Source: Actinomycetota bacterium
GTDB lineage: Bacteria; Actinomycetota; Coriobacteriia; Anaerosomatales; Anaerosomataceae
DNA length: 64,000 nt
Direction of reading: 5' to 3'
Assembly (NCBI GenBank): GCA_009668945.1
Contig: SBEH01000011.1
Coordinates: 1-64,000 of the forward strand
Positions 1-64,000 of this stretch are shown here, piece by piece (positions within the stretch are counted from its first letter, which is position 1; the number at the start of each line of letters is the position of its first letter). The position numbers and the translations under genes are program-made. A model generated the notes under the pieces. That model made no database searches and was not told the DNA's origin. It was given only the letters and a program-made list of their open reading frames with translations.

Positions 1-857
1 GTATCGCGGGGTGGGTGCTCGCCTCACGCCAACCGCTGCTGATCGAGGACCTGTCCGCCCGGACGCCCGCGGCCCGGCGGCACGGAGTCCGATCGGCGGT
101 GTGTGTGCTCATCGCGGATGACGACGGAGTTCTGGGAGTGCTGAACGTGGGTAGCCGTTCGTTCCCTGCGCGGTTCACAGAGTCGCATCTGGCGTCGATC
201 GAGGTCCTGGGAAGACAGACGGCCACGGCGCTTCGCAACGCGCGCGCGGTCGTGACCTCGCGGGAGCTCTACTTCGACACGCTCAAGGCGCTCGCGCTTG
301 CTCTGGAGACGAAGGATCCGTACTCGCGGGGAGGGACCGAGCGGGTGCTCGAGTACGCTGACGCGATCGGGCGGGTCTTCGGCCTGCGAGGCGAGGAGCG
401 CGACGCTCTGAGGATCGCCGCGCTGCTGCATGACATCGGCATGGCCGCTGCGGGCGAAGCGACGGCCACCGTCAGTCGGCCGCTCACGACGGTCGAGCGC
501 GCGCTCCTCAAGATGCATCCTCAGATCGCGGCGGAGATACTCGCCGAGGCACCGGCACTGAAGCACGTAGTGCCGATCGTGTACCACCATCATGAGTGGT
601 ACGACGGTGAAGGGTATCTCAACGGTGTGTCAGGCGAGTCTATCCCTCTAGGCGCACGGATCCTCGCCGTGGCGGATGCGTACGTGGCTATGACGTCGGA
701 CCGGCCCTACCGGTCAGCATACTCGAGCTCCGAGGCGCTCAAGGAACTGACGGACAAAGCAGGAACCCAGTTCGATCCCGCTGTCGTGGATGTCTTGCGT
801 GACATCCTGCAGGGCGGTTCGACCCGGGTTCCGGGGGGAAGCGGCGCAGGCTTCTAG
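1..857 (+). CDS. GAF / HD-GYP domain protein, 5'-truncated by window edge
   Basis: The reading frame is open to the left edge (codon phase begins at base 3), so the gene starts outside the window; the GTG at 15 is internal to a GAF-like stretch. After the GAF remnant comes an HD-GYP domain, known as a c-di-GMP phosphodiesterase fold. Visible motifs are LHDIGM (HD at about 429-434), MHP, HHHEWYDGEGYL and VADAYVAMTSDRPYR. Several family positions look altered: the early RGHSERV box reads RGGTERV, HDxGK reads HDIGM, and GYP reads GYL. Activity may therefore be reduced or lost (inference). The stop codon overlaps the stop of rpmB on the other strand. Confidence 0.85.
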   Translation, partial: IAGWVLASRQPLLIEDLSARTPAARRHGVRSAVCVLIADDDGVLGVLNVGSRSFPARFTESHLASIEVLGRQTATALRNARAVVTSRELYFDTLKALALALETKDPYSRGGTERVLEYADAIGRVFGLRGEERDALRIAALLHDIGMAAAGEATATVSRPLTTVERALLKMHPQIAAEILAEAPALKHVVPIVYHHHEWYDGEGYLNGVSGESIPLGARILAVADAYVAMTSDRPYRSAYSSSEALKELTDKAGTQFDPAVVDVLRDILQGGSTRVPGGSGAGF

Positions 858-1042
858 GCGCGGGTGACCTTGCCCGCCTTCATGCACTTCGTGCAGACAT
901 TGACCTTCTTGACCGCGCCGTCGACGACCACAGACACCTTCTGCACGTTGGGGTGGAACACGCGGTTGGTGACGCGATGAGAGTGGCTTACGTTGCGTCC
1001 CGCCGTCGGGCGCTTGCCACAGACGCTGCAGACCTTCGACAT
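854..1042 (-). CDS. rpmB: 50S ribosomal protein L28
   Basis: A 62-residue protein beginning MSKVCSVCGKRPTAGRN and ending in CTKCMKAGKVTRA, matching the usual L28 length. It carries a CxxC pair at each end (VCSVCG and VCTKC), the zinc-binding version of L28. The ATG at 1042 was chosen over the longer upstream frame because L28 proteins begin at this motif. It is the only clear minus-strand gene and is convergent with the HD-GYP gene: the four bases CTAG at 854-857 hold both stop codons. It diverges from the asp23-fakA operon. Confidence 0.95.
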   Translation of the reverse strand: MSKVCSVCGKRPTAGRNVSHSHRVTNRVFHPNVQKVSVVVDGAVKKVNVCTKCMKAGKVTRA

Positions 1043-1169
1043 GATCGGTGATCCCGTCCCTTGACCCGTTGGAGGCGGTCGCACGTACGACCGCCAGTGC
1101 TGGCAAAAGCGCGAATATGTTAGCACAGCCCGTAGCGCGGGTGGAAGCCCGCCGCACGGCCCGCAACGA

Positions 1170-1199
1170 TTCAGAGGCGGTGCGGCATTCGGCTATACT
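1170..1199 (+). promoter_or_regulatory. Candidate promoter for the asp23-fakA-fakB-recG operon
   Basis: TTCAGA (1170-1175) and TATACT (1194-1199) are separated by 18 bases and lie 59 bases before the asp23-like start. The -10 is a good match to the housekeeping consensus; the -35 matches 4 of 6. The rest of the 216-base gap between rpmB and this gene shows no other clear element. A minus-strand promoter for rpmB must also lie here but none stands out. Confidence 0.5.
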
Positions 1200-1258
1200 A
1201 CTGCGTACGTTCGCGCACCACGCTGCACCAGCGGATGCAGTCACTAGGAGGCTCGCCG

Positions 1259-1624
1259 ATGGCCGATGACGTACGGGGCACAGTCACTATCGCGAACGAT
1301 GTTCTTGCGGATATCGCCGGATTCGTTGCGCTCGAAGGATACGGGGTCGTGGGGATGGCGAGTCCGTCGCTGAGGGACGGCGTCGCACAACTGCTGTCTC
1401 GAGACAAGCTTCGCAAGGGCGTGGTGATCACCAACACCGACGAACGCAGCGTGACGGTCGATCTCTATGTCGTCGTGGAGTACGGGACGAACCTGACCAC
1501 TGTGTCGCACAACCTGTCGTCTGCGGTGCGACATGCACTCACACACAATGCGGTTGTACAGGTGTCGGAGGTGCGGGTCCATGTCCAGGGCGTGAAGCTC
1601 AGGAAGAAGTCGGAGCACGCATGA
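1259..1624 (+). CDS. Asp23/Gls24 family envelope stress protein
   Basis: A 121-residue protein of the Asp23/Gls24 (DUF322) family, beginning MADDVRGTVTIANDVLADIA, with the family's VTVDLYVVVEYG strand and conserved VRVHVQGV near the end. ATG 1259 follows AGGAGG at 1246-1251 with a 7-base gap; the longer frame from 1235 would place its start before this site. In Gram-positive genomes a short Asp23-like gene (YloU type) commonly precedes fakA, as here, where it overlaps fakA by ATGA. Members are linked to cell-envelope stress; the biochemical role is unclear. Confidence 0.9.
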   Translation: MADDVRGTVTIANDVLADIAGFVALEGYGVVGMASPSLRDGVAQLLSRDKLRKGVVITNTDERSVTVDLYVVVEYGTNLTTVSHNLSSAVRHALTHNAVVQVSEVRVHVQGVKLRKKSEHA

Positions 1625-3228
1625 CAGACGACTCCAGGCCCCTCGGGGTGGATCTGCTCACTGCCGCCGCGGGGGCGCTCAAGGCGCGAGCCGAAGAGGT
1701 CGACAGGCTGAACGTGTTTCCCGTGCCGGACGGGGATACGGGCACGAACATGTCGCTCACATTGGACGCGGTGCTCGCCGACCTTCAGAAGCTGCCGCCC
1801 GGCGCCGGCATCTCCGAGGTGTGCGCGGCGATCACACACGGTTCGCTGATGGGTGCGCGGGGAAACTCGGGCGTCATCCTGAGCCAGATGCTCCGCGGGC
1901 TGTGTGAGGTCGTCGGCCAGGCGTCGGCGGCGACCCCGGACCTGGTTGCGGCAGCGTTGGAGCGCAGCGTTCAGGTCGCATTCCAGGCGGTGCGCAAGCC
2001 TGTAGAAGGCACCATGCTGACCGTCCTCAAAGACTCCTCTACCGCCGCTACCGCCGGTGTCGCTGCGGGTCTCCCACTTGACGATCTGCTGGACGCGGTC
2101 GTGCAGGCGGCATTCGAATCGGTGCGCAGGGGGCCGGACCTGCTGCCGGTGCTCAAGGAGAACGGCGTCGTAGACGCTGGCGGCTTCGGACTCGCGATTC
2201 TCGAAGAGGGCTTCGTCGCCGCGTTCGAGGGCCACGAGTATCGAGAGCACAGCATCGAGACCGCCGAGGCCCCGCTGCAAGTTGTGCCGGTCGACGACTG
2301 GAGCGACAACGAGTATCTGTACTGCACCGAGTTCCTTCTCCACGAGGCACAGACGGACCTCGCGGCGATCAGAGAGTACGTCGCCGAGGCGGGGGGGTCC
2401 GAGCTCGTCGTGGGCGATGAGGACACCTACAAGATCCACGTCCACACGGATGAGCCGGGCAAGGTACTCGCCTGGGCGACCGCCGTGGGCGAGGTTTCCG
2501 AGGTCCACGTGAACAACATGCGCAGGCAGACGGCGGACCGTACGAAGTCGATCCGCGCGAAGGCGGCTCCATCGAAGCCGATGGGCTTCGTCGCGGTCGC
2601 CGCTGGGGCTGGCCTCGCGGCCATACTGAGCAGTCTTGGCGCCGATGTCGTGGTGAGCGGTGGTCAGACGATGAACCCCTCCACGGCGGAGCTGCTGGAT
2701 GCGGTTGGCCAGGTCGACGCTGCGTCGGTCGTCATCCTGCCCAACAACCGGAACATCATCATGGCCGCGCAGCAGGTGATAGGCGTGGCCGACCGACCAG
2801 TGGCCGTCATTCCTACCACGGCTGTACCGCAGGCATTCGCCGCGTTGCTGGCGTATGACGGGTCCGATGATCTCGAGGCTGTCGCCGAGGTGATGTCGGA
2901 GGCGGCAGCGGGTGTGAAGTCCGCTGAGGTCACCACGGCCGTGAAGAACTCGAAGGGCAAAGCGGGGACGATCAAGGCCGGAGATGTCATCGGGATCGTC
3001 GACCATGAGGTCGAGATCGTCGGCGCGGACATCGGCGAAGTGACCGAGGATGTCGTCGCAGTCATAGCCGAAGGCGGGGAGACGATCACCGTGCTAGCGG
3101 GCGAGGACTTTGATGACGCGAAGCTTGACGCGCTCGTGGAACGGCTTGCGGCCGCCCATCCCGACCTTGAGGTCGAAGGGCATCGAGGCGACCAGCCGGT
3201 GTATTCGGTGATCGTTGCGGTGGAGTAG
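1621..3228 (+). CDS. fakA: Fatty acid kinase FakA-like (DhaL + C-terminal DegV-like domain)
   Basis: A 535-residue YloV/FakA-type protein. The N-terminal DhaL (Dak phosphatase) domain holds NVFPVPDGDTGTNMSLT (Asp37, Asp39), the metal/ATP-binding box, followed by GARGNSGVILSQ and PVEGTMLTV. The C-terminal half is the conserved FakA domain that contacts the FakB partner. FakA phosphorylates FakB-bound fatty acids so that exogenous or recycled fatty acids can enter phospholipid synthesis. Its ATG overlaps the asp23-like stop, and the next gene encodes a FakB/DegV protein, so the kinase pair is encoded together. Confidence 0.92.
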   Translation: MTDDSRPLGVDLLTAAAGALKARAEEVDRLNVFPVPDGDTGTNMSLTLDAVLADLQKLPPGAGISEVCAAITHGSLMGARGNSGVILSQMLRGLCEVVGQASAATPDLVAAALERSVQVAFQAVRKPVEGTMLTVLKDSSTAATAGVAAGLPLDDLLDAVVQAAFESVRRGPDLLPVLKENGVVDAGGFGLAILEEGFVAAFEGHEYREHSIETAEAPLQVVPVDDWSDNEYLYCTEFLLHEAQTDLAAIREYVAEAGGSELVVGDEDTYKIHVHTDEPGKVLAWATAVGEVSEVHVNNMRRQTADRTKSIRAKAAPSKPMGFVAVAAGAGLAAILSSLGADVVVSGGQTMNPSTAELLDAVGQVDAASVVILPNNRNIIMAAQQVIGVADRPVAVIPTTAVPQAFAALLAYDGSDDLEAVAEVMSEAAAGVKSAEVTTAVKNSKGKAGTIKAGDVIGIVDHEVEIVGADIGEVTEDVVAVIAEGGETITVLAGEDFDDAKLDALVERLAAAHPDLEVEGHRGDQPVYSVIVAVE

Positions 3229-3247
3229 ACGAACAGGGAGGCCCGGC

Positions 3248-4093
3248 ATGCCAAGAACAGGAATCGTGTGTGACAGTACGTGCGACCTGGGTCCGGAGTG
3301 GTGCGAGCAGAACGATGTGGCGATGGTGCCGCTCAAAGTGCACTTCGATGAGGTCACCTACCTCGATTGGGTGGATCTTGCGCCCGACACGTTCTTCGAC
3401 AAGTTGGCGGCCGCGGAGACTCTCCCGAAGACGTCGCAGCCGTCTCCTGCCGAATTCGCGAAGGTCTACAGCCAGCTGGCCGAGGCCGGGTGCGAGGAGA
3501 TCGTGTCGATTCACCTCACCGCGGCGCTCTCCGGCACCATGGAGTCGGCCATGCTGGCGTCGAAGATGGTCACCGTCCCGGTTCACGTCATCAACACGCT
3601 GACCGTATCCATCGGCACGGGCCTGGCCGTGATTGCAGCTGTCAAGTCCAGGGATGCCGGCGGTGACGCTGCTGCGATCCGCGGGGTAGTCCAGCACGTC
3701 GTAGACACCGGTCGGCTGTATTTCGCCCTCGATACGCTCGACTACCTGGTCAAGGGCGGACGCGCGGGCAAGGCGCAGGGTCTGGCAGCATCCGTGCTGA
3801 ACATCAAGCCGGTGCTGACCTTCAATCGCGACGGGACTATCGAGCCGTTCAAGAAGGTTAAGGGGACGAAGAAGGCGATTGCGGAGATCGCGGCTGCAGT
3901 GGCCGCTTCCGGCCCGGGACGTCTTCACGTCGGCGTGCTCCATTCGAACGCTCCCGAGCTTGCAGCGGAACTGCTTGGCCAACTGGAAGCGCTTGGCGTA
4001 GACCACGACCACGTTCACACGAGCCTTGTGGGCGCGGTGATCGGGACGTACGCCGGCCCTCGGGCTGTCGGGGCCGCCGTATACCCGATGTGA
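3248..4093 (+). CDS. DegV family fatty-acid-binding protein (FakB-like)
   Basis: A 281-residue DegV protein: N-terminal TGIVCDSTCDL, TSQPSPAEFAKVY, IHLTAALSGTMESA and FALDTLDYLVKGGRAGKAQ are the family's lipid-binding and dimer motifs. ATG 3248 is preceded by AGGGAGG (3235-3241), which decides the start over the longer frame at 3215. FakB proteins hold a fatty acid while FakA phosphorylates its carboxylate. Adjacency to fakA supports that role; fatty-acid preference cannot be read from sequence. Confidence 0.92.
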   Translation: MPRTGIVCDSTCDLGPEWCEQNDVAMVPLKVHFDEVTYLDWVDLAPDTFFDKLAAAETLPKTSQPSPAEFAKVYSQLAEAGCEEIVSIHLTAALSGTMESAMLASKMVTVPVHVINTLTVSIGTGLAVIAAVKSRDAGGDAAAIRGVVQHVVDTGRLYFALDTLDYLVKGGRAGKAQGLAASVLNIKPVLTFNRDGTIEPFKKVKGTKKAIAEIAAAVAASGPGRLHVGVLHSNAPELAAELLGQLEALGVDHDHVHTSLVGAVIGTYAGPRAVGAAVYPM

Positions 4094-4097
4094 CGCC

Positions 4098-6212
4098 GTG
4101 ACGCCGCTGACCGAGGCAGTCTCGCAACGCGCCACGAATTCAGCGCGCACCGCCGAGGCGGTGACCTGCGTGCGACTGGTGGACACTCGCCGGGCAGCCG
4201 CTCTGGCGAAGCTCGGCATCTCGAGTGTGGGCGACCTGCTGCGGCACTACCCGTTCAGGTACCTGGACCTCACCGAGACATCGGATCTCCGCACTGTCCC
4301 TGTCGGCGCGGACGCCACGGTGGTGGGGCGGGTGCACGAGATCAAGGTGAAACACCCTCGTCCCCGTCTGACCATCACCGAGGTCGCAATCGTCGACGGA
4401 ACGGGTGCGCTCGTCGGCGTCTGGTTCAACCAGCCGTACATGGAGCAGCGGTTCGCGGTGGGCGACAGGGTGGCGTTCGCCGGAACCGTGCTATTCGACT
4501 TCGGACTGAAGCAGATGCGAAGTCCGTTCGTCGAGCGCCTGGACGACGAGCGCCGCGGTCCGGGACTCGCGCGCATACTGCCGGTGCATCGGGCAACAGA
4601 GGGACTGTCGACGAACTGGGTACGGCGTCTTGTGACCGAAGCGCTCGAGTATGCAGGTGACGTCCCGGATCCGCTGCCGGCCGCAATACGCAGCAGGCGC
4701 GGCCTGGTGCCGCTGTCGGCCGCTCTGCGGGGTATCCACTGGCCGGAGACGATGGACGATGCGTCCGAGTCTCGCCGGCGTCTGGCCTACGACGAGCTGC
4801 TGGCGATCCAGCTGGCGATGGCGCAGCGTCGCCATCACGCCACCATGGAGACACCCGGCCACGCGCATGACATCTCGGGTGCGCGGCTGGCTGCGCTCCG
4901 CTCGGCGCTGCCGTTCGAACTGACGGCCGATCAAGTGCGCGCTGTCGGGGACATCCTTGACGACATGGCCACGGTGCATCCGATGAACCGCATGCTGCTG
5001 GGCGATGTAGGGACAGGCAAGACCGCGGTAGCCGCGCACGCGATGGCGGCGTGCGCGGACTCGTCCACGCAAGCTGCGATGATGGCGCCGACGGAAGTGC
5101 TGGCAGCCCAGTACTCTCGGGCTGTAGGCCCGCTGCTCGACGAGGCAGGAATCAGGTGGCGTCTGCTGTCCGGGTCGACGAAATCGGGTGAGCGCAAGGA
5201 GATTCTGAGCGGTCTGGCGGACGGATCGGTCCAGGTTGCGTTCGGCACCCATGCGCTTATCCAGGAGTCGGTGTCCTTCGACCACTTGAGCCTGGCGATC
5301 GTGGACGAGCAGCACCGCTTCGGCGTGGAACAACGCCTCGCACTGCGTGGCAAGGGCGAGGGTATCGACTTGCTTGTGATGACGGCGACACCGATTCCGC
5401 GCAGCCTGGCGCTAACGGCGTACGGGGACCTGGAGACCTCCTACTTGCGCCAGCGTCCGGGTGGACGGGGAGCGGAACACGTCTCCACGCGGCTTGTGCC
5501 GATGAGCGGGCGCGCCGAGGCCTATGCGGCGGTGCGGCGGGCGGTCGCGGAGCGGAATCAAGCCTACGTGGTGTGTGCGCTCGTCGACGAGAGCGATGCC
5601 ACTCAGGCCAGGGCGGCGACTGCGGAGGCCAAACGTTTTCAGCAGAAGGTCTTCGCAGACCTGCGCGTCGGGTTGCTGACGGGCCAGATGGCGCCGGCCG
5701 AGAAGGTGGCGGCGATGGACCTGTTCCGTGCAGGAGAGACCGACGTGCTGGTAGCGACGACGGTCGTAGAGGTCGGCGTGGATGTACCGAACGCAACGGT
5801 GATGATCGTGGAGGATGCGGAGCGTTTCGGGCTCGCACAACTCCACCAGCTCAGGGGGAGGGTCGGTCGTGGAGATGCCCCTGGTGAGGTCCTGCTCTTC
5901 GCGGATCCCAAGACAGCGGACGGCCGTGCCAGGATGGATGCGATCACGACGACGAACGACGGGTTCGAGCTTGCGGAGTACGACCTTCAGCTTCGCGGTG
6001 AAGGGGACGTGCTCGGCGAGCGTCAGAGCGGGATTCCCGGGCTTCGGCTCGCGTCGTTGGCGCGCGACCAGGATCTCCTGGATGCGAGCCGGGCAGACGC
6101 GCTCGCACTCGTTGCGGCAGACCCGGGACTGCTCGCGCCGGAACACGCGCCGCTCCGGGAGGATGCCGTTCGGGGCGCAGGCGCGGCGTGGGAGTGGGTG
6201 AGTTCGGGATGA
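4098..6212 (+). CDS. recG: ATP-dependent DNA helicase RecG
   Basis: A 704-residue superfamily 2 helicase that remodels stalled forks and Holliday junctions. An N-terminal wedge/OB domain precedes the motor. Walker A is LLGDVGTGKTAVA (about residue 300), motif II is the RecG-typical DEQHRFG, motif III is TATPIPRSLAL and motif VI is QLRGRVGRG. GTG 4098 begins 4 bases after degV. About 20 residues precede the first recognisable RecG segment, so a slightly later start is possible. Its stop overlaps rsmD (ATGA). Confidence 0.95.
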   Translation: MTPLTEAVSQRATNSARTAEAVTCVRLVDTRRAAALAKLGISSVGDLLRHYPFRYLDLTETSDLRTVPVGADATVVGRVHEIKVKHPRPRLTITEVAIVDGTGALVGVWFNQPYMEQRFAVGDRVAFAGTVLFDFGLKQMRSPFVERLDDERRGPGLARILPVHRATEGLSTNWVRRLVTEALEYAGDVPDPLPAAIRSRRGLVPLSAALRGIHWPETMDDASESRRRLAYDELLAIQLAMAQRRHHATMETPGHAHDISGARLAALRSALPFELTADQVRAVGDILDDMATVHPMNRMLLGDVGTGKTAVAAHAMAACADSSTQAAMMAPTEVLAAQYSRAVGPLLDEAGIRWRLLSGSTKSGERKEILSGLADGSVQVAFGTHALIQESVSFDHLSLAIVDEQHRFGVEQRLALRGKGEGIDLLVMTATPIPRSLALTAYGDLETSYLRQRPGGRGAEHVSTRLVPMSGRAEAYAAVRRAVAERNQAYVVCALVDESDATQARAATAEAKRFQQKVFADLRVGLLTGQMAPAEKVAAMDLFRAGETDVLVATTVVEVGVDVPNATVMIVEDAERFGLAQLHQLRGRVGRGDAPGEVLLFADPKTADGRARMDAITTTNDGFELAEYDLQLRGEGDVLGERQSGIPGLRLASLARDQDLLDASRADALALVAADPGLLAPEHAPLREDAVRGAGAAWEWVSSG

Positions 6213-60177: not shown

Positions 60178-61395
60178 GTGACCGAGCGTCCCGTCATCGT
60201 CATGAAGTTCGGCGGCACGTCGGTCGCCACGCCAGAAGGGCGCTGCGCGATCGCCAGCCGCGTGACCGAGGCCCTCGAGCTCGGCAAGGCTCCAGTGGTC
60301 GTGGTTTCGGCGATGGGCCGCAAGGGCGCGCCGTACGCCACCGACACGCTGCTCGGACTCGTTGCCGACCTTCCCGCCGACGCGCGCGAGCGCGACCTGC
60401 TCGCCTCCAGCGGCGAGGTGATCTCCGCCGTGGTCGTGGCGCACGAACTCCGCGCTGCTGGCATAGACGCCTGCGCAATGACCGGCGCCGAAGCCGGCAT
60501 CGGCACCGATGGTGCGCACGAAGACGCGTCTGTGACCGACATCTACCCAGCATCGCTTCTGGATGCGATCGCCGCCGGCCAGGTGCCGGTCGTGGCGGGC
60601 TTCCAGGGTGTGGCGCCTGACGGGAGCATCACGACCCTCGGTCGCGGCGGAAGCGACACCACCGCCTGCGCTCTGGGTGTAGCGCTCGAGGCTGAGGCCG
60701 TGGAGATCTACACCGACGTGGACGGCGTGATGACCGCAGACCCGCGCACATGCGACGGCGCGGCCGTGCTCGACGTGATAGGCGCCGACGAGCTCTTCCA
60801 GATGGCCGCACACGGCTCGCGTGTGGTACACACGCCGGCAGCCGAACTTGCGCTGGCGAGCGGGCTTGCGGTGCGTGTGCGCAACACGTACACCGACCAT
60901 CCCGGCACCACGGTGGCCGACATCGCATCGTACCGTCCGGCGAGCGTGGCGACCGCTGTGTCGCACGCCACCGGCATCGCACGCGTGCGCGTGACGCTTC
61001 CCGCCGAGGAGGGGAGTGTCGACCACATGGCCGCACAGGCTCGCGTGTACCGGGCGATGGCCGACGCCGGCGTCTCGCTCGACATGTTCACGCCGGCGGG
61101 CGAGTCGCTGCTGTTCACGGTACCCGAGAGCGCCGTAGCCGAGGCGCGTCGGGTGCTCGACGGTCTCGGCCTTGACGCCGAGGCCCGCGAGAATCTGGCG
61201 AAGGTCACACTCGTGGGAGCGGGGATGCACGGGGTTCCCGGCGTTGTGGCTCGCATTGCCGAGGCGCTCGACGAGGCCGGCGTCCGTGTGTTGCAGACAG
61301 CCGACAGCCACACGACGATCTCGGTGCTTGTCCCCGCCGAGGATGCCGACCGCGCGGTAGGGGCACTACATGAGGGTTTCGGGCTCGGGGGGTAG
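60178..61395 (+). CDS. lysC: Aspartate kinase
   Basis: A 405-residue aspartokinase: VMKFGGTSVATPEG (kinase motif), ASSGEVISA, LGRGGSDTTACALGVAL and EIYTDVDGVMTADPR, then two ACT domains (from about residue 262; second with LVGAGMHGVPGVVARI) that bind the allosteric amino acid. GTG 60178 lies 4 bases after dapB. It is the last chromosomal core gene before the cassette array; its end is complete and of normal length, so the array did not truncate it. Confidence 0.95.
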   Translation: MTERPVIVMKFGGTSVATPEGRCAIASRVTEALELGKAPVVVVSAMGRKGAPYATDTLLGLVADLPADARERDLLASSGEVISAVVVAHELRAAGIDACAMTGAEAGIGTDGAHEDASVTDIYPASLLDAIAAGQVPVVAGFQGVAPDGSITTLGRGGSDTTACALGVALEAEAVEIYTDVDGVMTADPRTCDGAAVLDVIGADELFQMAAHGSRVVHTPAAELALASGLAVRVRNTYTDHPGTTVADIASYRPASVATAVSHATGIARVRVTLPAEEGSVDHMAAQARVYRAMADAGVSLDMFTPAGESLLFTVPESAVAEARRVLDGLGLDAEARENLAKVTLVGAGMHGVPGVVARIAEALDEAGVRVLQTADSHTTISVLVPAEDADRAVGALHEGFGLGG

Positions 61396-61529
61396 GGCCG
61401 CGGGTTCACTTCCGACTTATGCAGACTGCGCATGTCCGAGTGATATGCTCGAATGCAGGAACCTGCGCCGGGCGTATCCGGAACGCGAATACGTTCGTGT
61501 ACGGGGGATTGCGGTCTGGATACTAGGTG
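61396..61529 (+). other. Boundary segment between lysC and cassette array, possible attI
   Basis: These 134 bases end in the simple core GTTAGGC (61529-61535), where the first cassette begins after the G. No R'' box or pairing left arm precedes it, so it is not an attC; this is the position an attI site would occupy. No integrase gene and no clear gene fit here. Weak promoter-like words (for example TACTAG at 61521-61526) could serve the first cassette but are not convincing. Confidence 0.4.
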
Positions 61530-61575
61530 TTAGGCCCAGCGAAAGTGGGGCACCCCTGGTGGAGGTCGATGCAGC

Positions 61576-61800
61576 ATGAAGCAGTTCACCGCCACGTATA
61601 CCTCGAAGGACGCCGTCTCTCTGCACTGCCGCGGCTGCTCTGACGTGGTCGCGGAGGCGTCCGCGGGCAAGACGACTCAAGACTTCGACGCCGTCGACTA
61701 CAACGATGCAGTTGAAAGGCTCGTGGCGATGGGGTTTCCGGAGGAGCATGTCCGGATCTTCTTCTGCGTTGAGCATGCGCCAGACGCGCCGGATGCGTAG
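61576..61800 (+). CDS. Cassette 1 protein, unrecognised, 74 residues
   Basis: ATG 61576 follows GGAGG (61561-61565) by 10 bases and the frame ends just before attC1, the classic single-gene cassette layout. The protein is small and acidic, with a CRGC motif at about residues 18-21 (SLHCRGCSDVV) and a lone Cys near the end (RIFFCVEHAP). DAVERLVAMGFPEEHVR suggests a helical segment. I do not recognise a family. It is the first cassette, so would be the best expressed if an external promoter reads into the array. Confidence 0.75.
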   Translation: MKQFTATYTSKDAVSLHCRGCSDVVAEASAGKTTQDFDAVDYNDAVERLVAMGFPEEHVRIFFCVEHAPDAPDA

Positions 61801-61810
61801 GCGGTCGCGG

Positions 61811-61896
61811 GCCTAACAAGGGCATCGAGCAGAACGCCAGAAGGTAGACTGACCTGAGAGCGTGAGTGCGTCTGCTCATGCCCAAAGACGTTAGCG
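61811..61896 (+). other. attC: attC site 1
   Basis: R'' GCCTAAC (61811-61817) and R' GTTAGCG (61890-61896). L'' GGGCATCGAGCAGA pairs with TCTGCTCATGCCC near 61870-61883, leaving one extra C in L'' (an unpaired G on the bottom strand), the mark that orients recombination. R'' matches the 5' end of cassette 1, whereas R' TTAGCG belongs to cassette 2. Confidence 0.88.
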
Positions 61897-62317
61897 CGAT
61901 ACCGCGACACCTTCGGTGATGAGGTTTCCGCACGTCTCCCTCGGCTCGAATCCTTCGGCCTACCCGGCACGCGGTCGGACCTGAACGCGGCACCCCGGCA
62001 GGGAAAGCGCGCACGTTCGAGTCATCGCCCTAATCCCGTCGGCTGCGGCGCGCTGACCCTGGCAACCTGATCGGCCTCTTGCTCCCTGCGCGCCTGACCC
62101 GCAGGCATGGAAACGAAGGTGCTGGTCTTCGGTGCGCGCAGATTGTCGTCGAGAGTGTGTAGCCGGAGTCACCTTCGGGTCCGTCTTGCCGCACCCGCTT
62201 CCGTGACCACCTCGCCTGATGATCGTGAACTACTGCGCTAACAAGCGCATCCACACCGACGCGCCCGGCCGCTCGGTTATGCTGTAAGCGAGTGGCGCGC
62301 GGGTGATGCGCAACACG
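61891..62317 (+). mobile_element. Cassette 2, 427 bp, no convincing gene
   Basis: This cassette has the same length as cassettes 3 and 4 and is clearly related to them by point changes without net length change. The + strand shows only a 21-codon frame (61919-61984) without a proper ribosome-binding site. The minus strand has a 74-codon frame (62030-62254, GTG start inside its own attC, no ribosome-binding site), about 54 of 74 residues identical to the copy in cassettes 3/4. It may be non-coding, or carry an antisense gene or RNA. Confidence 0.8.
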
Positions 62318-62323
62318 TTAGCG
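62236..62323 (+). other. attC: attC site 2
   Basis: R'' CGCTAAC (62236-62242), R' GTTAGCG (62317-62323). L'' GCGCATCCAC pairs with GTGATGCGC, again with one extra C in L''. The central region contains GCGCCCGGCCGCTCGG and CTGTAAGCGAGTGGCGCGC, giving additional pairing in the terminal structure. Confidence 0.88.
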
Positions 62324-62744
62324 TGAATCCCGGGAGTCGGTGGAGATGAGGTTTCCGCGCGTCCTCCTCGGCTCGAATCCTTCGGCCTACCCGGCACGCG
62401 GTCGGACCTGAACGCTGCGCCCTGGCATTCAAAGCGCGCACGTTCGAGTCATCGCCCTATTCCCGTCGGCCGCGGCGCGCTTGCCATCGCCACCTGATCG
62501 GCCACTCGCTCCCTGCGCGCCTGACCCGCAGGCATGGAAACGAAGGTTCGCCTCTGTGGTGCGCGCAGAGTGTCGTCGAGAGTGTGTAGCCGGAGTCGCC
62601 TTCGGGTTCGTCTTGCTGCATGCGCTTACGTGACCACCTCGCCTGGGACTCGTGGCTCATCACGCTAACAAGCGCATCCACACCGACGCGCCCGGCCGCT
62701 CGGTTATGCTGTAAGCGAGTGGCGCGCGGGTGATGCGCAACACG
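62318..62744 (+). mobile_element. Cassette 3, 427 bp, no convincing gene
   Basis: Starts TTAGCGTGA, matching the reverse complement of its R'' flank CACGCTAAC over 9 bases. It contains a 21-codon + strand frame (62346-62411) and a 74-codon minus-strand frame (62457-62681, GTG start inside the attC). Neither has a good ribosome-binding site. It appears identical to cassette 4 apart from a few bases in the attC end. Confidence 0.8.
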
Positions 62745-62750
62745 TTAGCG
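62663..62750 (+). other. attC: attC site 3
   Basis: R'' CGCTAAC (62663-62669), R' GTTAGCG (62744-62750), with the same arms, extra C in L'' and central region as attC2; the two sites appear identical between their R boxes. Confidence 0.88.
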
Positions 62751-63171
62751 TGAATCCCGGGAGTCGGTGGAGATGAGGTTTCCGCGCGTCCTCCTCGGCT
62801 CGAATCCTTCGGCCTACCCGGCACGCGGTCGGACCTGAACGCTGCGCCCTGGCATTCAAAGCGCGCACGTTCGAGTCATCGCCCTATTCCCGTCGGCCGC
62901 GGCGCGCTTGCCATCGCCACCTGATCGGCCACTCGCTCCCTGCGCGCCTGACCCGCAGGCATGGAAACGAAGGTTCGCCTCTGTGGTGCGCGCAGAGTGT
63001 CGTCGAGAGTGTGTAGCCGGAGTCGCCTTCGGGTTCGTCTTGCTGCATGCGCTTACGTGACCACCTCGCCTGGGACTCGTGGCTCATCACGCTAACAAGC
63101 GCATCCACACCGACGCGCCCGGCCGCTCGGTTATGCTGTAAGCGAGCGGCGCGCGGGTGATGCGCCAGACG
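62745..63171 (+). mobile_element. Cassette 4, 427 bp, near-duplicate of cassette 3
   Basis: Repeats cassette 3 including the small + frame (62773-62838) and the minus-strand frame (62884-63108, same 74-residue translation). Differences are confined to the last part of the attC (a T to C change at 63157-region and changes just before R'). The near identity indicates a recent duplication. Confidence 0.8.
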
Positions 63172-63177
63172 TTAGGC
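63090..63177 (+). other. attC: attC site 4
   Basis: R'' CGCTAAC (63090-63096), R' GTTAGGC (63171-63177). Arms as in attC2/3 but with about three substitutions in the right half (GCGCCAGAC in place of GCGCAACAC). R' changes to TTAGGC because it belongs to cassette 5. Confidence 0.88.
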
Positions 63178-63195
63178 CCACGATTTGAGGTCGGG

Positions 63196-63903
63196 TTGAG
63201 GCGAGAGTTCAGAGGTGCAACCTGCGCATACTGCGGCGAGCGCACCTGCACCACTGACGATCATGTCTTCGCGCGAGGCTTCTTCTTGGAGGAGCATCGT
63301 GTGAATCTGCCCAAGGTGCCGGCATGCGATGAATGCAACGGCCGGAAGTCACACCTCGAGCACTACGCGACGACCATTCTCCCTTTCGGCGGACGTCACG
63401 CCGCTGCAATCGACAACCTGCGCACTCTGGTGCCGCCGCGTCTAGAGAAGAACGCCAGACTTCATCGGGATATCGTCGCGAACATGAGGCGTGCATGGGC
63501 CCAGCACGGCTCGTTCGTTCTGCCCACGGCCAGCGTGCCAGTTGACGGTGAGCGAATTCACGAGCTCTTTCGTTTCGTGGGCCGTGGGCTGGTTTCGTAC
63601 GAGTTCGGCGTGACTCTGAAGCCCTCGGATCTAGTCGAGGTGACCACACTGACTGCGCAAGGGATGGAGCTGTTCGAGACCCAGTTCTTCGGTCCGCACG
63701 TTAGCAGCGTCCGTCATGTGGATCTCGGCGCCGGAACCGTTGTGTACGAGGGGCTGCAGGCTCAGGACATGCCTGAGGCGACCGTATGGAGAATCCAGAT
63801 GTACGGGGGCATGTGGATGCTTTCTGATTCGACCCCTCCGGAAGCGAACGGATCGCTGCTTGGAATCATGACGGGTCCTGAGGGGATGGATGGCGGGGCC
63901 TAA
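63196..63903 (+). CDS. Cassette 5 HNH-like endonuclease-fold protein
   Basis: A 235-residue protein whose N-terminal 55 residues hold an HNH-type pattern: Cys10/Cys13 (CAYCGE), Asp22-His23 (DDHVFARGFF), Cys44/Cys47 followed by Asn48 (VPACDECNGRKS) and Glu55. TTG 63196 is chosen because GAGG lies 5 bases upstream and it is inside the cassette; GTG 63157 would start in the preceding attC. The last 170 residues are unrecognised. The TAA stop (63901-63903) lies inside the attC5 R'' box. HNH proteins occur as solitary nucleases and in defence systems; no partner is encoded here. Confidence 0.8.
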   Translation: MRREFRGATCAYCGERTCTTDDHVFARGFFLEEHRVNLPKVPACDECNGRKSHLEHYATTILPFGGRHAAAIDNLRTLVPPRLEKNARLHRDIVANMRRAWAQHGSFVLPTASVPVDGERIHELFRFVGRGLVSYEFGVTLKPSDLVEVTTLTAQGMELFETQFFGPHVSSVRHVDLGAGTVVYEGLQAQDMPEATVWRIQMYGGMWMLSDSTPPEANGSLLGIMTGPEGMDGGA

Positions 63904-63984
63904 CAAGTGCTTCCAGCTGGCGCGGCAGGCGCTATCGTGTGATGCAGACGCTTCGGCGCGCAGCTGAAGCACCGGACGTTAGGC
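63898..63984 (+). other. attC: attC site 5
   Basis: R'' GCCTAAC (63898-63904), R' GTTAGGC (63978-63984). L'' TGCTTCCAGCTG pairs with CAGCTGAAGCA near 63961-63971, with one extra C in L''. Its arms differ from attC1 and from attC2-4, so at least three attC types are present. After R' the sixth cassette begins and runs off the window. Confidence 0.88.
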
Positions 63985-64000
63985 GTGGAATCGCTGGGGG

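What the first reader, a model, noticed from the sequence alone, without database searches (positions are those of the whole stretch)
61891..63171. Triplicated 427-bp cassette: one diverged copy followed by two nearly identical ones
Three neighbouring cassettes have exactly the same length and align without net indels. Two look essentially identical and one is diverged. Keeping length constant while bases change suggests selection on the unit, and the array position suggests repeated capture or duplication of the same cassette.
Basis: seen in the sequence. Interest (0 to 1): 0.75.

Follow-up and report, generated by a model that had tools for sequence, protein, structure and literature searches.

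The report
Tripled gene-less integron cassette
The repeats are three neighbouring copies of one integron gene cassette that seems to carry no gene, sitting in a chain of captured genes in a little-known actinobacterium; tripled gene-less cassettes are already known from Vibrio, but the way this chain is laid out is unusual.

Summary
Three 427-bp units (61891-62317, 62318-62744, 62745-63171) lie head to tail. B and C differ at 3 bases, A and B at 55, with no net indel. Each unit is an integron gene cassette: its limits fall on the G^TT cut of attC sites, and the attC hairpin is supported by covariation and by a model that also finds attC beside named relatives' integrases. The genome encodes one integron integrase. 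The array starts at an attI-like site directly after lysC with no integrase beside it; three relatives carry attC arrays in the same lysC-dapA gap. The cassette body shows no coding signal, no excess RNA folding and no relative in any collection searched. Paralogous non-coding cassettes are known from Vibrio (PMC1382264), so the finding is a new member of a known kind. Selection on length is only partly supported: the central 301 bp is gap-free with 31 changes, but the two ends could hide compensating indels. Two leads go further: the integrase-less attI platform, and a strand-specific TANNNT hexamer in 98 of 111 attC loops of this lineage against 15 of 39 attC mostly from outside it.

The parts
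61417..61429 (+). attI accessory motif TTATGCAGACTGC, 21 bases between it and the lysC stop; same motif (TTACACAGACTGC) lies 3' of intI in own and related genomes
61515..61533 (+). attI core TCTGGATACTAGGTGTTAG, cut G61529^T61530; no integrase gene adjacent
61530..61890 (+). first cassette; ORF 61576-61800 (74 aa; weak UBA/TS-N Pfam match, E 3.3e-5)
61812..61896 (+). attC of the first cassette (77.2 bits); loop hexamer TAGACT 61845-61850
61891..62317 (+). cassette A, 427 bp, diverged copy, no convincing gene
62237..62323 (+). attC of A (80.4 bits), identical to that of B over the cassette's last 82 bp; loop hexamer TATGCT 62278-62283; bottom strand folds with z -2.64
62318..62744 (+). cassette B, 427 bp, no convincing gene
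62664..62750 (+). attC of B (80.4 bits); loop hexamer TATGCT 62705-62710
62745..63171 (+). cassette C, 427 bp, 3 changes from B, all in attC
63091..63177 (+). attC of C (81.6 bits); loop hexamer TATGCT 63132-63137
63172..63978 (+). next cassette; ORF 63196-63903 (235 aa; HNH-nuclease-like by eye, recalled motif, no Pfam match)
63899..63984 (+). attC of that cassette (79.2 bits); loop hexamer TATCGT 63933-63938
60178..61395 (+). lysC-like gene (named from recall; its orthologues in relatives are followed by the dapA-like gene), 5' neighbour of the array; the dapA-like gene is the 3' neighbour on contig C7 (4137-5027)

Best explanation
The feature is three consecutive copies of one gene-less integron cassette inside the cassette array of a chromosomal integron of an uncultured actinomycetote. 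Shown by sequence: three units bounded by attC G^TT cut points, an integrase gene in the genome, an attI-like site at the head of the array, no coding signal in the units. Inferred: the integrase, made from its gene at another locus, works in trans on this array. An old duplication gave A and the B lineage, a recent one gave B and C; both are either integrase moves of the cassette or unequal recombination between identical attC sites. Also inferred, and weaker: the cassette acts as a regulatory or spacer module like the gene-less cassettes of Vibrio (promoter or short transcript) and not as a gene, each copy adding an attC whose loop carries a TANNNT (-10-like) hexamer pointing at the next cassette.
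For: Unit limits at the G^TT of attC sites. attC consensus hairpin with 9 of 15 pairs showing double-sided changes in 12 sites. The model built from these finds 34 attC in the genome at E<=0.1 and attC downstream of intI in named relatives not used to build it. One IntI at 471.7 bits (cut-off 265) on C21, 89% identical to that of UBA6100. attI motif 3' of intI repeated after lysC. Of 31 delimited cassette units only A, B and C share bodies; all other matches among them are confined to the attC ends. No coding signal: substitutions by phase 17/18/20, GC phase spread 0.03 (A) and 0.11 (B) against at least 0.14 in every 345-nt window of five other genes, no frame with an excess of synonymous changes, no Pfam match for four short ORFs of the units.
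Against: No recombination or expression data. No sigma-70-type promoter found in 61380-64000. The integrase contig (C21) and this array (C24) are not joined in the assembly, so action in trans is inferred. The strict Vibrio criterion 'no ORF over 150 bp' is not met (50 codons on +, 74 on -), although high GC makes such frames common. No second genome carries the cassette in the searches made, so functional constraint rests on one pair of sequences. A crude control found no TANNNT enrichment upstream of other genes of this lineage (27 of 68 regions, shuffles mean 28.5), which weakens the -10 reading.
Confidence: 0.85

Rival explanations
1. The cassette encodes a structured regulatory RNA, like the integron-borne sRNA-Xcc1; constant length reflects RNA structure.
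For: Clustered changes and a gap-free centre; sRNA cassettes exist (PMC8876359, passages).
Against: Folding no better than shuffles on either strand (z for A: 0.01 and 0.72, for B: -0.17 and -1.33); consensus fold of A+B no better than column shuffles (z -0.52 and -0.23); only 2-3 compensated pairs in the body fold; no Rfam match over threshold.
Confidence: 0.15
2. A decayed protein-coding cassette: the gene has been lost to frameshifts and the copies drift.
For: Most other cassettes in the genome carry an ORF over most of their length; an ATG lies near the expected start at about position 29 of the unit (by eye).
Against: No phase signal is left in A or B; no Pfam match; no relative of the body in the searches made; the centre has kept length and blocks of 29-56 bp with 0-2 changes, odd for a free-drifting relic.
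Confidence: 0.2
3. A short protein is encoded (74-aa frame on the minus strand or the 44/50-aa frames on plus).
For: The same frame is open in A and B.
Against: 23 codons changed, only 3 synonymous, in the longest shared minus frame; its GTG start lies inside attC; no Pfam match.
Confidence: 0.05
4. The B/C duplication is an assembly artefact.
For: B and C differ at only 3 bases; a contig (C2) starts inside the same repeat, so the assembler met an ambiguity here.
Against: An invented repeat would not readily give three changes confined to C's attC; the assembly is 99.26% complete and 0.16% contaminated; A is clearly distinct.
Confidence: 0.07

Closest known systems
Paralogous non-coding (ORF-less) cassettes of Vibrio chromosomal integrons (PMC1382264; passages read)
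   Same: Gene-less units bounded by recombination sites, several copies in one array, 84-88% identity between paralogs, similarity over the whole length; gene conversion or purifying selection proposed there.
   Different: Here tandem, in an actinomycetote, with body divergence but identical attC between A and B; no homolog found in other species, whereas in Vibrio sp. DAT722 17 of 25 had relatives.
Gene-less promoter cassettes (Vibrio, PMC11014356, abstract, outline and passages read; Treponema, PMC6557892, abstract and outline read)
   Same: Cassettes without genes inside arrays; promoter role shown there by reporter assay.
   Different: No promoter was predicted here; PMC11014356 has a section headed that such promoters cannot be identified in silico.
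Chromosomal integron with intI transcribed towards attI (Treponema type, PMC3607928, passages read)
   Same: attI lies 3' of intI, integrase and cassettes in the same direction.
   Different: Different phylum; extra attI copy after lysC without an integrase.
CALIN, clusters of attC lacking an integrase (IntegronFinder 2.0, PMC9024848, passages read)
   Same: The lysC-dapA arrays of relatives have attC sites and no integrase in the interval.
   Different: Has an attI-like head at a fixed chromosomal place in two genera; [quoted passage not shown]

Membership tests
Integron gene cassette / chromosomal integron | attC sites: R''/R' cores and folded hairpin at each unit end | tested here: met
   bottom strand of one attC folds with z -2.64
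Integron gene cassette / chromosomal integron | integron integrase gene in the genome | tested here: met
   TIGR02249 471.7 bits over cut-off 265
Integron gene cassette / chromosomal integron | attI site at the head of the array | tested here: met
   sequence conservation with intI-linked attI of relatives; activity not tested
Integron gene cassette / chromosomal integron | IntI-catalysed excision and insertion | not testable with these tools
   needs a recombination assay
Non-coding cassette as defined for Vibrio (PMC1382264) | no ORF longer than 150 bp | tested here: not met
   50-codon + frame and 74-codon - frame; the rule was set for Vibrio, the units here have 65-66% GC
Non-coding cassette as defined for Vibrio (PMC1382264) | homologous copies conserved over their whole length without a synonymous-site pattern | tested here: met
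Non-coding cassette as defined for Vibrio (PMC1382264) | no BLASTX match in public proteins | not tested
   no such database here; Pfam only
CALIN | two or more attC without a nearby integrase | tested here: inconclusive
   met in L194 (6 attC) and L195 (9 attC), L196 has 1; in the window's own genome the lysC-dapA interval is split over contigs, so an integrase inside the gap is not excluded, though the only one found is on C21
Structured non-coding RNA | folding beyond shuffled sequence, or covariation | tested here: not met

The most novel reading that the evidence does not exclude
In this actinomycetote lineage attC is not only a recombination site but also a promoter piece: its loop carries a -10-like hexamer (commonest TAGACT and TAGGCT) on the sense strand, so every cassette is expressed wherever it lands. 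That would free arrays from the integrase-linked promoter and allow integrase-less attI platforms inside housekeeping operons (lysC-dapA). Tandem gene-less cassettes would then be stacked promoter or spacer modules for the gene behind them.
Probability: 0.25. Interest if true: 0.75.

Novelty: new member of a known kind. Interest (0 to 1): 0.4.

Why it matters
The repeat itself extends paralogous gene-less cassettes, described in Vibrio, to a phylum in which a survey of complete genomes found no complete integron (PMC9024848, passages); here 22 of 27 genomes of the family have an integrase over the cut-off. The context raises two testable questions: whether an integron can keep a second attI in a housekeeping gene cluster and load it in trans, and whether attC loops can carry promoter elements that make cassettes self-expressing.

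Tried and rejected
Relatives of the cassette: family (27 genomes; whole 427-bp unit; matches outside the own genome only in attC), order (69; body only; one other genome, a 21-bp match taken as chance), phylum sample (396; body only; 14 other genomes with matches of 22-65 bases at E 3e-5 to 9e-4, taken as chance), viral contigs (3 exact patterns), genome contigs (one 20-base exact pattern), plasmids (4 weak matches, 8% of the query), phages (none). Exact patterns would miss diverged copies; metagenome contigs could not be scanned.

Structured RNA, tRNA, coding frames and sigma-70 promoters were tested and not supported. Dropped before counts: of 133 attC matches 12 duplicates and then 10 outside 78-106 nt, leaving the 111 (one search kept 111 with limits 70-140 nt); of 51 matches 12 (duplicates or outside 70-140 nt), leaving the 39. 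One source locus of that second set (L086) is titled Actinomycetota, and the set was found with a model trained on this genome. In the first set, loci were chosen by me (52 sources), and include several overlapping loci of one genome. A first regular-expression attC search missed most sites and was replaced by the covariance model. A translation in a wrong frame was discarded. Cassette limits were set by script; a few on C9 and C20 do not end at a GTT and are unreliable.

Full report
Observation. The three units are there and more than chance: Tandem Repeats Finder reports period 427 with 2.9 copies and score 2211. A (61891-62317) and B (62318-62744) differ at 55 of 427 positions, B and C (62745-63171) at 3. 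The 55 A/B changes all lie in the first 345 bp; the last 82 bp, part of the attC, are identical. The changes are clustered: blocks 6-27 and 328-345 differ at 13 of 21 and 11 of 17 positions, while blocks of 38, 29 and 17 bp have none. In each of six scoring schemes a gapped alignment scores higher, with gaps only near the ends, but the gain over the whole cassette is reached in 41-70 of 400 random-letter controls in the four schemes tested. So the centre keeps its length by point changes, and the ends are undecided.

What it is. The limits of the units fall on G^TT in sites of the form CTAAC...GTTAG. Twelve such sites from this and other contigs of the genome align with a consensus hairpin in which 9 of 15 pairs show double-sided changes. 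A covariance model built from them finds 34 sites in the genome at E<=0.1 on seven contigs, five sense-strand sites in the window and sites downstream of intI in named relatives that were not used for building. The genome has one integron integrase over the curated cut-off (C21:252099-253040); the nearest named ones are 89% identical (UBA6100 and isolate 7-NCT_026). The units are integron gene cassettes.

Head of the array. Relatives' integrons carry an attI-like module 3' of intI: an accessory motif like TTACACAGACTGC and a core like CTGGATACTAGTTGTTAG; not every relative shows both at the mismatch limits used. The window has both after the lysC stop (61417-61429 and 61515-61533) without an integrase gene beside them. 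In the own genome two cores and one integrase are found. Of 27 family genomes, 19 have the dapA-like gene within 1.5 kb after lysC; 4 (own, G014, G022, G025) have attC there instead; 2 (G018, G026) have other sequence; in 1 (G023) the contig ends; in 1 (G024) no close lysC was listed. In G025, G022 and G014 dapA lies 13.2, 12.1 and 3.1 kb beyond lysC, with 6, 9 and 1 attC between and no integrase match in the stretch. G025 has no integrase at the threshold. By eye, the three relatives have the accessory motif and a changed core after lysC; at 6 mismatches the core itself is found only in the own genome. In the own genome the dapA side is contig C7, where attC sites run up to 3814 and dapA starts at 4137. 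A further attI core with accessory motif and no integrase in the 9 kb read is on G026 C7.

What the unit does. No gene is visible: GC by codon phase spreads 0.03 (A) and 0.11 (B) against a minimum of 0.14 in windows of five other genes; substitutions fall evenly on the three phases; shared open frames have few synonymous changes; Pfam finds nothing in four short ORFs. RNA folding is not beyond shuffles and the two-sequence consensus fold is ordinary. Gene-less cassettes with several copies in one array are described from Vibrio (PMC1382264, passages), and 29 gene-less Vibrio cassettes were tested, most having promoter activity (PMC11014356, abstract and passages). The best guess is therefore a regulatory or spacer module; this step is inference.

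How the copies arose. B and C are a recent duplication: identical bodies, three changes in C's attC. A is old by its body yet shares its attC with B exactly; at the body's rate 82 unchanged positions are unlikely, so A's attC was probably exchanged with B's by recombination (inference). C2:1-55 matches the same attC end at 100% and leads into a different cassette (GIY-YIG type), so the site, and perhaps the cassette, also occurs away from the tandem.

A further pattern. In 98 of 111 distinct attC of the lineage set the loop contains TANNNT on the sense strand, against a mean of 12 to 17 in shuffles and 32 on the other strand. After clustering at 85, 75 and 70% identity it is 58 of 71, 32 of 40 and 18 of 23. 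In attC of integrons found mostly outside the phylum it is 15 of 39, with a shuffle mean of 12.8. The commonest forms are TAGACT and TAGGCT, no -35-like block is seen upstream, and a crude control upstream of 68 other genes shows no enrichment. That actinobacterial -10 boxes read TANNNT is recalled. In Vibrio a promoter bridging an attC was localised, with its -35 in attC (PMC2945992, passages). The listings of searches showed no paper on a -10 element in attC loops; those searches are narrow.

Verdict. The finding is real and ordinary in kind: a new member of the gene-less paralogous cassettes, in a lineage where integrons are little described. The integrase-less attI platform and the loop hexamer are the parts worth following.

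Noticed in passing
61417-61533; L194, L195, L196; L158 (attI core at 2501 on the minus strand): attI-like sites heading attC arrays without an adjacent integrase; in four genomes of two genera the array lies between lysC and dapA.
   Followed up: partly
61845-61850, 62278-62283, 62705-62710, 63132-63137, 63933-63938 and 98 of 111 attC (A2): A sense-strand TANNNT hexamer, most often TAGACT or TAGGCT, in the attC loop of this lineage, not enriched in 39 attC from mostly other phyla.
   Followed up: partly
L017:11938-13230: intI is transcribed towards attI, as in Treponema integrons, not away from it.
   Followed up: no
The genome search family: 22 of 27 genomes of the family have an integron integrase over the cut-off, though a survey of complete genomes reports no complete integron in Actinobacteria (PMC9024848).
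   Followed up: partly
L015:78-647, 798-4307; L014:4006-4818: Other cassettes carry a GIY-YIG protein, a 1169-aa DEAD-box helicase with zinc ribbon and DUF559, and an ion channel.
   Followed up: no
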